Shown piece by piece: positions 13,901 through 20,749 of a stretch of 21,713 nt of DNA (position 1 is the stretch's first letter; each line of letters opens with the position of its first letter). This stretch comes from Gemmatimonadota bacterium (GTDB lineage: Bacteria > 4572-55 > J002). The position numbers and the translations under genes are program-made. Below the pieces are notes generated by a model that saw nothing but the letters and a program-made list of their open reading frames with translations, did not search any database and was not told where the DNA came from. The stretch spans positions 1 to 21,713 of the forward strand of contig RFFQ01000056.1 in assembly GCA_003697105.1 (NCBI GenBank), given 5' to 3'.

Positions 13901-14917
13901 ATGAACTCCCACCGATTTTTTATCTTGAATATGGCTTTCGTGTTGTGCGGTTCACTCTGGCTGGTGAGCTGTAACCCGTTGCGGCTCAAAGATGATCAAG
14001 CTACGTTTAAGTCACACTGTTATCATTGGGCTGTGGATACCTCGTTGGCATACCAGCACCGGCAAGTAACCTTAAGCACCATGTTGACGGAATCCGGTAA
14101 GCTCATCATTGATAATGCCGTAGGCAGTATTGCCATCCGTCCCGGAAAGTGGTCTAATGTCTTTGTCAAAGGTGAAATTTATCTACCGGAGGGGCAACCG
14201 TTGGATAGTGTGAGTGTGCGTTCTCAAATCCAAAATTCCCCAACTCGGAGTGACTCAAATTTTGTGTACATTTATACCGATTATCGCCTGACGGATCGCT
14301 TTGATGGGTTTACCCTGATGGACGTGTTCGTGCCGGAAGAATTAAAAGAATTGGAAATTAGATCGAAATCTGCCTCAATCACCATCTCCCAGCTCAATGC
14401 GAACCTGATTATCGGATCACCATGCAGTAATGTAATTGCCCGTGAAATCACCGGTGATTCCGAAATATGGGTCGAATACGGAAACGTTATCTTGGAAAAT
14501 AACGGTGGGCATGTGAATATTGAAAATATCGCCGGGGATGTTACTTTAATCGCTAAAGTGGAGAATGGAAAAACGTACGATGTCGAAACGGTGAGTGGCA
14601 CCATCCAATTTATTCCCCGCAATAACAGTGGTAGCATCTCGATTGCCACGGTCTCCGGGCGCATTGATGTCAGTGAGAACCTGATCTCCACGGAGAGCAG
14701 CCCCTTCAGCGAAAACCCGGGATATGCCACGGAACTTCGGGGTGAGATCGAAATTCAAGGTGAAGATATTCCGCAAGCTGATGTCACGGATCGCCTGTTA
14801 CAAATTAGTGCCGGTAAGCGTTCGGAAGCCCAAGTGGTTGAAGGGCGGTTGGGCACCGGCAGTGCCCGCATCTATCTAAACAGCACCAACGGTGATATTT
14901 ACGTCCGCCAACCCTGA
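13901..14917 (+). CDS. Lipoprotein with DUF4097-type beta-strand repeats
   Basis: The 338-residue product begins with a lipoprotein signal ending LVSC, a near-canonical lipobox with Cys24, so it should be anchored in the membrane. The mature part is made of repeating short strands such as GKLIIDNAVGSIAIRPG, GDVTLIAKVENG, VETVSGTIQFIP and ATVSGRIDVSENL. This is the DUF4097 (putative adhesin) beta-helix style: strand, small turn, strand, with Gly or Ser at turns. It ends ARIYLNSTNGDIYVRQP, as many DUF4097 proteins do. The molecular role of the family is unknown. AAGAAAGGCGGTG provides the ribosome site. It is in one run with accC and overlaps the glycosyltransferase gene (TGATG). Confidence 0.8.
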   Translation: MNSHRFFILNMAFVLCGSLWLVSCNPLRLKDDQATFKSHCYHWAVDTSLAYQHRQVTLSTMLTESGKLIIDNAVGSIAIRPGKWSNVFVKGEIYLPEGQPLDSVSVRSQIQNSPTRSDSNFVYIYTDYRLTDRFDGFTLMDVFVPEELKELEIRSKSASITISQLNANLIIGSPCSNVIAREITGDSEIWVEYGNVILENNGGHVNIENIAGDVTLIAKVENGKTYDVETVSGTIQFIPRNNSGSISIATVSGRIDVSENLISTESSPFSENPGYATELRGEIEIQGEDIPQADVTDRLLQISAGKRSEAQVVEGRLGTGSARIYLNSTNGDIYVRQP

Positions 14918-16035
14918 TGATGGCTATCTTTAATACCACTCTGGTGATTTCCACCGCGATATATTGCATAACCCTGCTTTGGTTGTTAGCAGGGTTGTTT
15001 CGTTTAAAACCCGGACAATCGGAAGAACAACCGCGCGTTTCGGTGATTGTTCCGGCTCGGAATGAAGCCGCCACCATCCAAACTTGCCTTGAAGCCTTAC
15101 TCCGCCAAACGTATCCCGTCGATAAATTAGAACTGATTTTTGTGGATGATCGATCGACTGATGAGACGGCAGCGATTATCCGTGCCTACGCCAACCGTTA
15201 CCATCAAATTCGGTTGGTGTCCGTTACGGCAGAACAACCGCAGTTGGTCGGCAAGAAAAACGCGATCACGCAGGGGATCGCCCAAAGTAATGGGACGTTG
15301 ATTTTAGCGCTGGATGCGGACTGCCAACCCGGCGCCGAGTGGGTGAGGCAGATGGTACGCTACTTTGAACCGGACGTGGGGGTAGTGGCAGGTTATGTGT
15401 ACACAGAAACACCGGCGGAACATGTACCACACTGGCAACGGATGCGGGGCTTGGAACGGCTCGGGGTTGTTGCCGTTGCCGCCGGAAGCATGGGGTGGAA
15501 CGTCGGGATAACCTGTACTGCCAACAATTTTGCCTACCGCCGGCAGGTTTTTGAAGAAGTCAACGGGTTTGCCGGCATTGGGCATATTCGTTCCGGGGAT
15601 GACGATCTATTTGTGCAAAAGATTTTTCGGGAAACATCATGGCAGTTTCGCTATGCCACCCATCCGGGAACCTTTGTCCGCACCCAAGTACCAACATCTC
15701 TTCAGCAAGCTTGGCAACAGGAAAAACGACGCTCCAGCAAGGCAAAATATTATCCGCTGTGGTTGGTTCTGGCACTTATTCCGCCATTTGTGATGAATCT
15801 TCAATTTGGGGTTGCTCTCCTGACCGGTTTCTGGTGGCAGGGCATCATTCCGGTTGCCGGGGGCTGTTTTGGAGCCAAAACTCTGATTGAAGGATTGGTG
15901 ATGGTGCGAACAAGCGCCCTATTTAAGCGATGGGACTTGTGGCGCTATTTCCCTCTGGTGGAAATACTCTATATCCCGTATTTCGTGGTGTTGGCAGTGG
16001 TGGGGACGTTCGGGAAATACCGGTGGAAGGATTAA
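14917..16035 (+). CDS. Membrane-bound family 2 glycosyltransferase
   Basis: The 372-residue protein has an N-terminal membrane helix (residues about 5-28), then a GT-A domain. VSVIVPARNEAATI is the nucleotide-sugar strand. D77-D78 in FVDDRSTDET and D133/D135 in LDADCQPG bind substrate and metal. RSGDDDLF is near the acceptor site, and Q268EKRR resembles the QxxRW motif of processive family 2 enzymes with Arg for Trp. Hydrophobic segments from about residue 285 form the C-terminal membrane part. It should move a sugar from a nucleotide donor to a lipid or glycan at the inner membrane; the product is unknown. ATG 14917 overlaps the previous stop; a second ATG at 14920 would also serve. Confidence 0.88.
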   Translation: MMAIFNTTLVISTAIYCITLLWLLAGLFRLKPGQSEEQPRVSVIVPARNEAATIQTCLEALLRQTYPVDKLELIFVDDRSTDETAAIIRAYANRYHQIRLVSVTAEQPQLVGKKNAITQGIAQSNGTLILALDADCQPGAEWVRQMVRYFEPDVGVVAGYVYTETPAEHVPHWQRMRGLERLGVVAVAAGSMGWNVGITCTANNFAYRRQVFEEVNGFAGIGHIRSGDDDLFVQKIFRETSWQFRYATHPGTFVRTQVPTSLQQAWQQEKRRSSKAKYYPLWLVLALIPPFVMNLQFGVALLTGFWWQGIIPVAGGCFGAKTLIEGLVMVRTSALFKRWDLWRYFPLVEILYIPYFVVLAVVGTFGKYRWKD

Positions 16036-16060
16036 AAAACCCGCCTTAAGAAAGACGGGT
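16034..16060 (-). terminator. Terminator of the mscS/trxB-like/STAS run
   Basis: Read on the minus strand, ACCCG (16060-16056) pairs with CGGGT (16043-16039). After one mismatch, CTT pairs with AAG around a 4-base loop. Six T follow, and the T-run overlaps the glycosyltransferase stop on the other strand. It lies 15 bases past the STAS stop. Confidence 0.8.
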
Positions 16061-16074
16061 AAAAGGGAAACATG

Positions 16075-16476
16075 TTATATATACGTGCGCTCAAATTCAA
16101 AAGTAATCCCGGGAAACTGGAGGAAACCCACCTGTTCCAAAATTTGGTGGATCAATTTATCCGGTGCGATAATCAATTTGAGTTTCACTTGGCGGGAATA
16201 AAGCACATTGTAAATGTTTGCTAAATAGCCGATAGTCAGTGAGTTTACGTAATCCAATTCGTATAAATCTAAAATCACCGTTTTTCCTTTTTCCTGTGAA
16301 CGGATCCATTTGCCCGATGGGCTAGCGATACTCTCAAAAACGGTTTGCACGTGTTCTGTAAATAATTCTCCTTGAAAACGGATGAGGGTAACCTCCTCTA
16401 CATTGGGGGATACCAAAACTTCAACCGTGACATCAGCAAGTTCCAGTTGATCGATTACAGTCCAAACGGGTGGCAT
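16075..16476 (-). CDS. STAS-like domain protein, divergent
   Basis: The 133-residue protein has the strand order of a STAS domain: EVTLIRFQGELFTEHVQTVF, then KTVILDLYELDYVNSLTIG and KLKLIIAPDKLIHQILEQVG. At the usual D-S-x-G site it reads N78-S79-L-T, so the serine is kept but the Asp and Gly are changed. It may thus bind a partner without the standard phosphorylation cycle, which is inference. A short N-terminal stretch (MPPVWTVIDQLELAD) precedes the domain. GGAG stands before ATG 16476. It follows the TrxB-like gene after 16 bases and is the last gene before the terminator. It is clearly not a copy of the other STAS protein in the window. Confidence 0.65.
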   Translation of the reverse strand: MPPVWTVIDQLELADVTVEVLVSPNVEEVTLIRFQGELFTEHVQTVFESIASPSGKWIRSQEKGKTVILDLYELDYVNSLTIGYLANIYNVLYSRQVKLKLIIAPDKLIHQILEQVGFLQFPGITFEFERTYI

Positions 16477-16492
16477 ACGTTCTCCACGTCAA

Positions 16493-17449
16493 CTAAGAGT
16501 TTGATTCAGAATGAGTTAGTACATAATTTCGGGCATTGATTCCGGCAACAGAACCATCGCCAACGGCACTTGCAACCGTATGCACCGAATATTGGCGGGC
16601 ATCACCGGCGGCAAAAATACCGTCCCGGGAGGTTTGCAAGCGTTGATCGACCCAGATATAGCCATTCTCATCTAGGTCAACTATTCCGTGCAAAAATGCG
16701 GTGTTGGGGGTTTGCCCGATGGAAACGACACAGCTATCCACTTTGAGATAGTCTGGTTGGTCTGTTTTCCGGTGGCGTACTTGCACGCCTTCAAGTTGTT
16801 CTTCTCCCAGAACCGCCGTCACTTCGGTTTCCAGCAGGGTCGTGATCGCCGGATATTCGGTTAATTGATCCTGTAATGCCGCTTCTGCCTGTAGGGCACG
16901 ACCCCGGTGAATCAGTATGACTTGTCGGGCATATTTCCCCAGCATGAGTGCATGGGTAAGCGCACCATCACCACCACCGATTACCGCCACAATTTGATCT
17001 TGAAAAAGCGCACCTTCAATCCCAGTCCGGTAGTAAAGACCCTGTCCTTCCCAGCGTTGGGCACCCGGGCACGCCAACGGGCGGGGAGAAGACCCGGGGG
17101 CAAGAACCATTGCTTTACCATATATAATGTGATCGTCTGTTTCGACAAACATGTCACCGTCATAGTCAATATTCAGGGCATTCACTTCCCCGCGTACCAA
17201 CCGAAGCCTGTAACGACAGGCATGATCTTCAACGGCTTTTGCTAATTGGAAGCCGGAAATCCCGTGTGGAAACCCCGGATAATTATCCACATGTTCCATA
17301 AAAGCGACATGTCCCCCCACCGTGTGATGCTCCAACAGCATCACACGTAAATTTGCCCGTCCGGCATACAATGCTGCTGTTAAGCCGGCAAGACCGCCAC
17401 CGACAATCACAACATCTACATCGCTAATCGGTTTTTTCGTATCAAACAT
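16493..17449 (-). CDS. TrxB-fold FAD/NAD(P) oxidoreductase lacking the redox CxxC
   Basis: The 318-residue protein has the two-domain thioredoxin-reductase fold. It shows the FAD motif G17GGLAG22, VGGHVAFMEHVDNYPGFP, the second nucleotide motif VAVIGGGDGAL (residues 154-164) and the FAD motif GIFAAGDARQYS near the end. Where E. coli TrxB has CATC, this protein has R141-T-G-I144, with flanking Gly-Leu-Tyr-Tyr and Glu-Gly aligned. It therefore cannot reduce thioredoxin by the normal disulfide relay. The NADPH-phosphate motif HRRxxxR reads HRGRALQ (H181 to Q187), so two of the arginines are lost and NADH or another donor is possible. A ferredoxin-type reductase or a regulatory flavoprotein are alternatives. 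It has its own promoter directly before the ATG and is followed by a STAS gene. Confidence 0.85.
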   Translation of the reverse strand: MFDTKKPISDVDVVIVGGGLAGLTAALYAGRANLRVMLLEHHTVGGHVAFMEHVDNYPGFPHGISGFQLAKAVEDHACRYRLRLVRGEVNALNIDYDGDMFVETDDHIIYGKAMVLAPGSSPRPLACPGAQRWEGQGLYYRTGIEGALFQDQIVAVIGGGDGALTHALMLGKYARQVILIHRGRALQAEAALQDQLTEYPAITTLLETEVTAVLGEEQLEGVQVRHRKTDQPDYLKVDSCVVSIGQTPNTAFLHGIVDLDENGYIWVDQRLQTSRDGIFAAGDARQYSVHTVASAVGDGSVAGINARNYVLTHSESNS

Positions 17450-17494: not shown

Positions 17495-18373
17495 TTACAT
17501 CGTAGGGGATACGACGTGCACTTGTAAAGGTTGCCGCGTATCCAGATGCACATCCCGTTGTGGAAATGCAATACCAATTCCGTGTTCCCGGAAAAGTTCA
17601 TCGATCCGAAACCGTAGATCACTTTTGACTTGCTGGGCATCCATCAGTGTATTGATTTTCACCCAAAAATGAACTTCAAAATCGAGGGTGTTATCCCCAA
17701 AGTCAGAAAACAAGATAATCGGCTCGGGTTCAGGGATGATCGAGGCCTGTTCTTTTACCGCCTGCCGGAGGAGTTGCGCCACTTGCTGCGTAGGCGAACC
17801 GTATTCCACCCCCACCCGAACATTAACACGCACATTTTTATTGGGAGAGAGAGTCCAATTGATGACCGTTTTCTCCAAAAAAACACTGTTGGGAACTAAG
17901 ATATAAATCCCTTCAAACGTACGGACGCGGGTGCAACGTGCGCCAACCTCTTCTACTGTCCCGTGATTCCCTTCAATTTCAACCATATCCCCAATACGCA
18001 CCGGTTGTTCGATCATGATGATCAAGCCACTGATAAAATTGTTGAGGATATTCTGCGCCCCAAAACCGAACGCAATCGCCACAGCTCCCCCTAAAAAGGT
18101 AAAAATGGTCAGGGGGATATTAGCTACCTGCAACGATACCAAAAAAATTAAGAAAATGGTGGTGTAATACAGAATATTCTCAATGAGAATCGCTGGTGTG
18201 GGTTCCACACCCATCCGCATGAACCCATCACGAGTCCGTTTGCGGATAAAATATCGGGCAAACAACATCCCTAAGCCCAACACAAATGCCGCAGTGACCA
18301 CATCTCCAACGATGACCCAATTGCCGCCGATAGTGATCAATTGAGTATTCCAAATTTGGAAGAAAAGGCGCAT
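17495..18373 (-). CDS. Small-conductance mechanosensitive channel (MscS family)
   Basis: The 292-residue protein forms an inner-membrane channel that opens under tension to release solutes after osmotic downshock. Three membrane segments precede the pore helix GGAVAIAFGFGAQNILNNFI (residues about 94-113), rich in Gly and Ala as in MscS TM3. The beta domain follows (GDMVEIEGNHGTVEEVGAR, RVRTFEGIYILVPNSVF), then the C-terminal alpha/beta domain ending IGIAFPQRDVHL, the usual close of the family. The length is that of plain MscS. The next gene has its own promoter 9 bases past this stop. A long inverted repeat lies upstream. Confidence 0.95.
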   Translation of the reverse strand: MRLFFQIWNTQLITIGGNWVIVGDVVTAAFVLGLGMLFARYFIRKRTRDGFMRMGVEPTPAILIENILYYTTIFLIFLVSLQVANIPLTIFTFLGGAVAIAFGFGAQNILNNFISGLIIMIEQPVRIGDMVEIEGNHGTVEEVGARCTRVRTFEGIYILVPNSVFLEKTVINWTLSPNKNVRVNVRVGVEYGSPTQQVAQLLRQAVKEQASIIPEPEPIILFSDFGDNTLDFEVHFWVKINTLMDAQQVKSDLRFRIDELFREHGIGIAFPQRDVHLDTRQPLQVHVVSPTM

Positions 18374-18485: not shown

Positions 18486-18926
18486 CTAAAACGAATGACC
18501 GCGATAAGCCCATGATAACAAAAGCAGTGAGCGAATACTCCAAGCGATGGCTCGTACCCAATTAGTGCGCACTAAAAATTGGTAAACATCTGGATCAAAC
18601 CCCTGTGTGAGTTTATCGTGTGCCGGTGCTTGCCAGAGTGCCGTCGAGAACTAAATTAGTCCTAGCAACCCGATTCCAGACCATGCGACAACCGGCGGCA
18701 TCCAGAGCGGCGGTTGGACCGCCAAAATAACGGCGGTAATTAGTTCAATTATCATTACCGGAGCAACGATACATGTGATTCGCTTCCGATGTGCATGTTC
18801 GTAATCTCTAAATTGATCCGTACCCACGCGCGACAACAATGGATAGTGCACGAACTGGATTACCCAAATCAAGCCACACATAAATACGGTTGAAAATATC
18901 TGAACCAGTAGGATTTACATCATCAT
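18486..18926 (-). pseudogene. Small multi-spanning membrane protein gene broken by two in-frame stops
   Basis: The frame starts ATGATGATG at 18926, overlapping the TGA of the TPR gene, and reaches a TAA at codon 4 (18917-18915). It then reads ILLVQIFSTVFMCGLIWVIQ, VHYPLLSRVG and HRKRITCIVAPVMIIEL, to a TAG at codon 92 (18653-18651). It continues in the same frame as FSTALWQAPAHDKLTQGFD, LVRTNWVRAIAWSIRSLLLL and stops at 18486. Both sides of each stop look like one family of about 145-160-residue membrane proteins of unknown function, as I remember it. There the TAG position is usually Trp, one change from TGG. No frameshift is present, so decay is recent, or the stops are read through. An ATG at 18881 allows only a 76-residue piece. 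Confidence 0.75.
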
Positions 18927-20749
18927 GGTATTTGGAGCTTATTTTTGACTTTTAGCAACTTTTTTCGGGCAAGATCGGCATATAAACTTTCAGGATAGCT
19001 AAACAAAATTGATTCTAATTCCACTTTTGCGGCTTCATAGTCGTGCTGCACATCGCTATAGATGGTAGCCGTCCGGTCCATCGCTTCTGGGCAGAGCGGG
19101 CTGGCGGGATAATCTTTGGTTAGCGAGCGGTATGCCGTAATGGCATGTTCATAATCCCCTTTTTTTTCATACTGCAACGCGATCTGAAATAGGGCATCAT
19201 CTGCGAGAGCCGAGTTCGGATTCCGTGTCACCAAGCCTTGAAATACTCGAATGGCTTCCTCATATTGTATCTGTTCTGAGAGCAACCATCCATTGAGAAA
19301 CTCTTGTAATTCTGAATCTTCTATATCTTTATTTTCATCTAAGAAAAATTGTAACCGTAACGCATCATTGAGATAAATTCCGTTCGTGTACGTTTTGATC
19401 ATCCCGGTCAGGATGTCTCCGGCACGTTCCAGATCACCCTGTAAGAGTGCCAAATAACCGAGTTTATACTTCGCTTTTTCAACGATATCCGCTGCCGCGG
19501 TTGCCTGCATAATACTCTCATACTGTTTTTGAGCATTTTCCAGTTCACCTTTCACCAAATAGGCATCCCCAACCCGAAACCGAACATCAATCGCGGCGAC
19601 ACTGCGCGAAAATTGTGATAAGTATTGCGAATAGGTTTCAATCGCATTATCCGGCTGGTGCAGTTTATCCAGATAAAGATTGCCCATTTTCACATAGGCA
19701 TCTGCGGCTTGGTTGGAACGGGGATTTCGGTTGATAATTTGCCGGTATGCCTCAATCGCTGCGTCATAATCACCGAGTTTTGAGAGTGTTTCCGCTTGGT
19801 AAATTTGCCCTTGAATTGCAAATGGACTCGTTGGATAGTGGGTCAACAAATGGTCAAATGCGTGGCGTGCGGTTTCATATTCACCCTCGTCCATGCAGCG
19901 TCGTCCAAAATTGAGCAATTCGCGCCCGTTCCCATTGGACTTTTGGTCAAAAATGATGATCTCCGCTAACCCTTTTGCCGCCTGACCGCTAATCAAATAT
20001 AAATCACCCAGTACTTTACGGATATTGACCTCATTGGGAAATTCTGCTAGCGCCGCTTGGGTCACTTCTAGGGCAAGCGACCAAATGCCTTCATCTTCAG
20101 CTAATTTTTTGATACGTCCTTCCACCCATGCTTGTTGGCTCGGTTGGGCATACATATACAAGAGGTATTCCCGAATAGCCTCCCGAAAATTCATCTGCAC
20201 TTCATAAATCCGCGCCAACTCCCGGGAGAATAACGTTGGATTTTGCCGCTGTTGTCGCCCCTTCAGATAGGTTTGGGTCGCTTCATCCAGCATCCCATTG
20301 GAAAAATAGAGATTTGCCACGGTAATGACCGAATTGTCCGACGGGTCTAGCTGCAGAATCCGCTCCCATTGTTTGATGCCCTCTTCCCGTTGCCCCACTT
20401 TGATCAAGGACTCTCCCAACCAGCGTAGATATTGCGCGTTATCCGGGTCTGTTTCCAGACGGGTTTGGCAGAGCGTCACGGCATCATCATATTGTTTGAG
20501 TTGCAACATGTTTCGCACAATTCCGTCAAAAATGATCGGATTATTCGGGTAATTTGGTTCCAACGCGCGATAAATTTCCAACGCTTTGTGATATTGATTA
20601 AGCCGCTCAAACTGGCTTGCCACCCGTAACTGCCGTGTCAGGTGTTCATTATTGGGCGTCACTTGACGTGGCTGTTGGGCAAATGTGATGTTGGACGTTC
20701 CGAAAACTACGGACAATACAATCAAGACGTAAGCTACTGTTTTCTGCAT
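18923..20749 (-). CDS. Exported tetratricopeptide-repeat protein
   Basis: The 608-residue protein begins with a signal peptide (MQKTVAYVLIVLSVVFGTSN, cleaved after about ITFAQ), then consists almost wholly of TPR-like helix pairs. Examples are YHKALEIYRALEPNYPNNP, YDDAVTLCQTRLETDPDN, YDAAIEAYRQIINRNPRSN, YEEAIRVFQGLVTRNPNS and YEHAITAYRSLTKDYPASP. The later repeats match the YbgF/BamD-type pattern of periplasmic TPR scaffolds. It should act as a protein-binding scaffold in the periplasm or at the outer membrane; the partner is unknown. GGAGG lies 6 bases before ATG 20749. The gap to the restriction gene upstream is 18 bases, so transcription may continue from it. The stop overlaps the start of the broken membrane gene (ATGA). 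Confidence 0.9.
   Translation of the reverse strand: MQKTVAYVLIVLSVVFGTSNITFAQQPRQVTPNNEHLTRQLRVASQFERLNQYHKALEIYRALEPNYPNNPIIFDGIVRNMLQLKQYDDAVTLCQTRLETDPDNAQYLRWLGESLIKVGQREEGIKQWERILQLDPSDNSVITVANLYFSNGMLDEATQTYLKGRQQRQNPTLFSRELARIYEVQMNFREAIREYLLYMYAQPSQQAWVEGRIKKLAEDEGIWSLALEVTQAALAEFPNEVNIRKVLGDLYLISGQAAKGLAEIIIFDQKSNGNGRELLNFGRRCMDEGEYETARHAFDHLLTHYPTSPFAIQGQIYQAETLSKLGDYDAAIEAYRQIINRNPRSNQAADAYVKMGNLYLDKLHQPDNAIETYSQYLSQFSRSVAAIDVRFRVGDAYLVKGELENAQKQYESIMQATAAADIVEKAKYKLGYLALLQGDLERAGDILTGMIKTYTNGIYLNDALRLQFFLDENKDIEDSELQEFLNGWLLSEQIQYEEAIRVFQGLVTRNPNSALADDALFQIALQYEKKGDYEHAITAYRSLTKDYPASPLCPEAMDRTATIYSDVQHDYEAAKVELESILFSYPESLYADLARKKLLKVKNKLQIP

What the first reader, a model, noticed from the sequence alone, without database searches (positions are those of the whole stretch)
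18486..18926. Membrane-protein gene with two in-frame nonsense codons and no frameshift
The same frame runs from ATGATGATG at 18926 to 18486 except for TAA at codon 4 and TAG at codon 92. The protein pattern continues smoothly across both. TAG sits where relatives I remember have Trp (TGG), and TAA can come from AAA (Lys) by one change. This is either a very young pseudogene or regulated read-through. TAA, TAG and TGA all end other genes here, so a changed genetic code is unlikely.
Basis: partly seen in the sequence, partly recalled or inferred. Interest (0 to 1): 0.6.

Follow-up and report, generated by a model that had tools for sequence, protein, structure and literature searches.

The report
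Young pseudogene of a membrane protein
A bacterial gene for a small, uncharacterised membrane protein has been switched off by two stop codons, one of them replacing a tryptophan that nearly all relatives keep; this is ordinary recent gene loss, not a new way of reading the genetic code.

Summary
On the minus strand, 18926-18486 is one frame of 147 codons broken only by TAA (18915-18917) and TAG (18651-18653), and it ends at its own TAG (18486-18488). In an alignment with 68 homologues from other genomes, 65 have Trp at the TAG column. All 68 continue at least 40 residues past it. The rest of the window protein keeps the family consensus as well as intact members do. TAA lies at the variable N-terminal edge, where several homologues only start, so it is the less certain lesion; still, no ATG, GTG or TTG lies between it and codon 16. 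Recoding is unlikely. RF1 is present, no PylS passes its cut-off, none of the 44 tRNAs found reads UAG or UAA, TAG ends about 15% of long genes, TAG is followed by T, and no RNA structure stands out downstream. The genome has no second copy, and the only same-class relative available has no detectable match. Synonymous codon bias is low (2nd percentile), which fits relaxed selection or foreign origin. Best reading: a recently inactivated, single-copy gene of a patchily distributed, uncharacterised membrane-protein family. An assembly error cannot be excluded without reads. Interest is low.

The parts
18486..18926 (-). Disrupted gene (pseudogene) of a roughly 143-residue membrane-protein family, 147 codons in one frame including its terminal TAG
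18915..18917 (-). In-frame TAA, codon 4, at the variable N-terminal edge; it blocks the ATGATGATG starts
18651..18653 (-). In-frame TAG, codon 92, at a near-invariant Trp (65 of 68 homologues)
18486..18488 (-). Natural terminal stop, also TAG
18923..20749 (-). Upstream intact TPR-repeat gene; its TGA overlaps the first ATG of the disrupted gene
17495..18373 (-). Downstream intact MscS-type mechanosensitive channel gene

Best explanation
A single-copy gene for a small, uncharacterised membrane protein has recently lost its function by point mutation. The TAG at codon 92 (shown) removes the last third of the protein, which holds the most conserved motif (LVRTNWVRAxxW). The upstream TAA (shown) blocks the only canonical starts near the N-terminus. 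Other changes are too few to have erased the family pattern or introduced an indel, so the inactivation is young (inferred). Relaxed selection may follow from the gene's dispensable, patchily held nature (inferred from its distribution).
For: W at the TAG column in 65 of 68 homologues, all continuing 40-73 residues beyond it. The window protein matches 85% of consensus columns, within the range of intact members. Homologues found in other genomes have uninterrupted frames: of about 120 matches, three show one stop each. Those in L015 and L166 lie at the natural end of their frames; the third (G558) was not read. No second copy in the genome. RF1 present, no PylS above cut-off, no UAG- or UAA-reading tRNA among the 44 found. 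TAG ends 61 of 396 long ORFs in a sampled 0.93 Mb. The synonymous codon score of the frame is at the 2nd percentile of same-size gene pieces (3rd among hydrophobic pieces), as expected after relaxed selection or foreign origin. Patchy family: 15 of 386 diverse genomes, absent from the only same-class genome.
Against: Two nonsense changes would on average accompany about 40 substitutions under neutrality, yet no indel is seen and only two positions conserved in 87% or more of relatives besides the Trp differ (F31 to L, T126 to A). Both of these also occur in some intact homologues. The pattern is a little cleaner than expected, but not improbable for a young pseudogene. No close relative exists for a dN/dS test.
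Confidence: 0.84

Rival explanations
1. Consensus or assembly error, or strain mixture, in a draft genome of 199 contigs: one or both stops are not in the living population.
For: The genome is a draft. Apart from the stops the frame looks intact, with no indel.
Against: Other genes in the window are intact. Two independent nonsense errors in one 441-base gene and none evident in its neighbours would be unusual. Low codon bias points to something real about this gene.
Confidence: 0.09
2. TAG (and TAA) are read through, by programmed or low-level suppression, giving a full-length protein.
For: The downstream part keeps all the strongly conserved residues except T126. Some bacterial pseudogenes are still expressed (Sodalis glossinidius, PMC7067036, abstract seen).
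Against: RF1 present, no PylS above cut-off, no cognate tRNA among the 44 found. TAG is also this gene's own terminator and a common stop genome-wide. The stop is followed by U and no stable downstream structure was found (z = +0.68). No homologue conserves a stop at codon 92. Two different stop codons would have to be bypassed.
Confidence: 0.03
3. TAA is not a lesion but lies outside the gene (start at a non-canonical ATC or CTG just after it, as some homologues begin there); only the TAG is inactivating, or a truncated protein of about 87 residues is made.
For: Homologues L013, L014 and the Deinococcus plasmid copy start at or one codon after the TAA position. Position 4 is variable.
Against: No ATG, GTG or TTG occurs between the TAA and codon 16, and there is no clear Shine-Dalgarno sequence. 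A protein ending at codon 91 lacks the invariant C-terminal motif, and no homologue is that short.
Confidence: 0.04

Closest known systems
Young bacterial pseudogenes formed by nonsense mutation (e.g. Salmonella pseudogenes, PMC2916853; arginine decarboxylase in Chlamydia, PMC2720952; abstracts seen)
   Same: Otherwise intact reading frame interrupted by point nonsense codons; intact relatives elsewhere
   Different: No close strain is available here to date the event or to see the intact allele
Uncharacterised membrane-protein family of about 143 residues, with weak similarity to Pfam Anthrone_oxy (PF08592)
   Same: Length, HYP..F motif, W at codon 92, TNWxRTxxW motif
   Different: Similarity to PF08592 is weak (3 of 8 members match, best E 0.00039; member 1 scores 11.6 bits against a cut-off of 27.3); the window frame itself has no Pfam or NCBIfam hit
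Pyrrolysine (UAG) or other stop-codon recoding
   Same: An in-frame UAG inside a conserved frame
   Different: No PylS above cut-off and no UAG-reading tRNA found; the site is a Trp site; a TAA is also involved

Membership tests
Pseudogene by nonsense mutation | Homologues are intact and continue past the stop | tested here: met
   68 of 68 aligned homologues continue at least 40 residues beyond the TAG column
Pseudogene by nonsense mutation | The stop removes a conserved or essential part | tested here: met
   TAG falls on a Trp found in 65 of 68 homologues; the motif with N122, W123, R125 and W129 lies downstream
Pseudogene by nonsense mutation | Relaxed selection on the frame | tested here: inconclusive
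   Synonymous codon score at the 2nd percentile fits decay or foreign origin; conserved residues are still intact; no sister sequence for dN/dS
Pseudogene by nonsense mutation | Stops present in the raw reads | not testable with these tools
   no reads available
Pyrrolysine or UAG recoding | PylS and a CUA-anticodon tRNA in the genome | tested here: not met
   PylS model below cut-off (27.7 against 178 bits); no such tRNA among the 44 found
Changed genetic code (TAG or TAA as sense) | RF1 missing and the codon not used as terminator | tested here: not met
   RF1 554.7 bits; long ORFs end TAA 225, TGA 110, TAG 61
Programmed read-through | Stop conserved at the same site in relatives, or a stimulating context | tested here: not met
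   No homologue has a stop there; downstream RNA fold z = +0.68
Anthrone_oxy (PF08592) | Profile match above the gathering score | tested here: not met

The most novel reading that the evidence does not exclude
A gene kept under selection behind two different stop codons and expressed in full by low-level read-through, that is, a functional 'pseudo-pseudogene' with a UAG read at a Trp site.
Probability: 0.02. Interest if true: 0.6.

Novelty: new member of a known kind. Interest (0 to 1): 0.08.

Why it matters
It matters little beyond annotation. The frame should be annotated as a pseudogene rather than as two small proteins or a recoded one. It also shows loss of a patchily distributed, still uncharacterised membrane-protein family in this lineage.

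Tried and rejected
Changed code and pyrrolysine: rejected. RNA structure after the TAG: nothing. Promoter and terminator scan: chance level. Second intact copy in the genome: none. Conserved neighbourhood in the only same-class genome: not found, since the MscS and TPR hits there are distant and on other contigs, so no empty site could be compared. Apparent extra stops in homologues L015 and L166: both lie at natural C-termini. Codon-score scan for other nonsense-split genes in 0.93 Mb: most top hits have a start codon within a few codons of the stop and look like adjacent genes, and the method ranks this TAG only 165th of 1538 stops, so it cannot give a genome-wide pseudogene rate. Neutral simulation: it left F31 and T126 out of the conserved set, so its low probabilities overstate the cleanness of the frame and are not used as evidence; only its expected number of substitutions is used.

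Full report
Observation. The minus-strand frame 18926-18486 was read directly. It has 147 codons, with TAA as codon 4, TAG as codon 92, a terminal TAG and no frameshift. The ATGATGATG overlaps the TGA of the upstream TPR-repeat gene (18923-20749), and an intact MscS-type channel gene (17495-18373) follows.

What the protein is. The read-through frame has no Pfam or NCBIfam match. It has one copy in the 4.18 Mb, 199-contig genome and no match in the only other genome of the same class. Homologues were found in a Planctomycetota genome, on Deinococcus plasmids, in 15 of 386 diverse genomes including this one, and more often in two phyla searched around hits (20 of 111 and 89 of 392 genomes). The family is uncharacterised; intact members show only weak similarity to Anthrone_oxy, PF08592.

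What the stops hit. Alignment with 68 homologues puts Trp in 65 at the TAG column; the three exceptions (L019, L140, L142) are divergent members with Leu. All 68 continue 40-73 residues past it, through a motif in which R125 is kept in 68, W129 in 66 and W123 in 65. The window protein matches 35 of 41 consensus columns (85%), within the range of intact members. The TAA column is variable (L, E, V, A, I and others; no Lys), and several homologues begin at or one codon after it. TAA is therefore a weaker argument for damage, although no ATG, GTG or TTG occurs between it and codon 16 and no clear ribosome-binding site is seen.

Could it be read through? RF1 is present, no pyrrolysyl-tRNA synthetase passes its cut-off, and none of the 44 tRNAs found reads UAG or UAA. 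In a 0.93 Mb sample, 61 of 396 long ORFs end in TAG, as does this gene itself. TAG is followed by U; from general knowledge such contexts tend to terminate well. The RNA after it folds no better than shuffles. No homologue has a stop at this column. The genome does have a tRNA-Sec and a selenophosphate-synthetase-like gene with an in-frame TGA, so it very probably recodes UGA, but that machinery does not act on UAG or UAA (general knowledge).

Age. The frame has no indel and little visible damage beyond the stops, so inactivation is probably recent. Its synonymous codon score is at the 2nd percentile of same-size gene pieces, which fits relaxed selection or a foreign origin; the two cannot be separated without a sister sequence. 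A neutral model expects about 40 substitutions for two nonsense changes. The observed frame is cleaner than that average, but two conserved positions (F31 to L, T126 to A) may be additional damage.

Verdict. A young, single-copy pseudogene is the best explanation (0.84). A consensus error (0.09), a start after the TAA or a truncated product (0.04) and read-through (0.03) are the rivals. Reads and conspecific genomes would decide.

Noticed in passing
L065:1834 (- strand; G000 contig C12): A selenophosphate-synthetase (SelD)-like frame runs through an in-frame TGA (VACAG*ASKIAPGVLDD...), and a tRNA-Sec was found in the same genome sample: the organism very probably makes selenoproteins.
   Followed up: partly
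L091:15046 (+ strand): Another coding-looking frame across a TGA lies antisense to a long intact repeat-protein gene (13975-17235, - strand), so it is a shadow frame, not a recoded gene.
   Followed up: yes
17495-18373: For this MscS-type channel of the window, the only same-class genome has five distant MscS-like genes (25-29% identity), none evidently its ortholog.
   Followed up: partly
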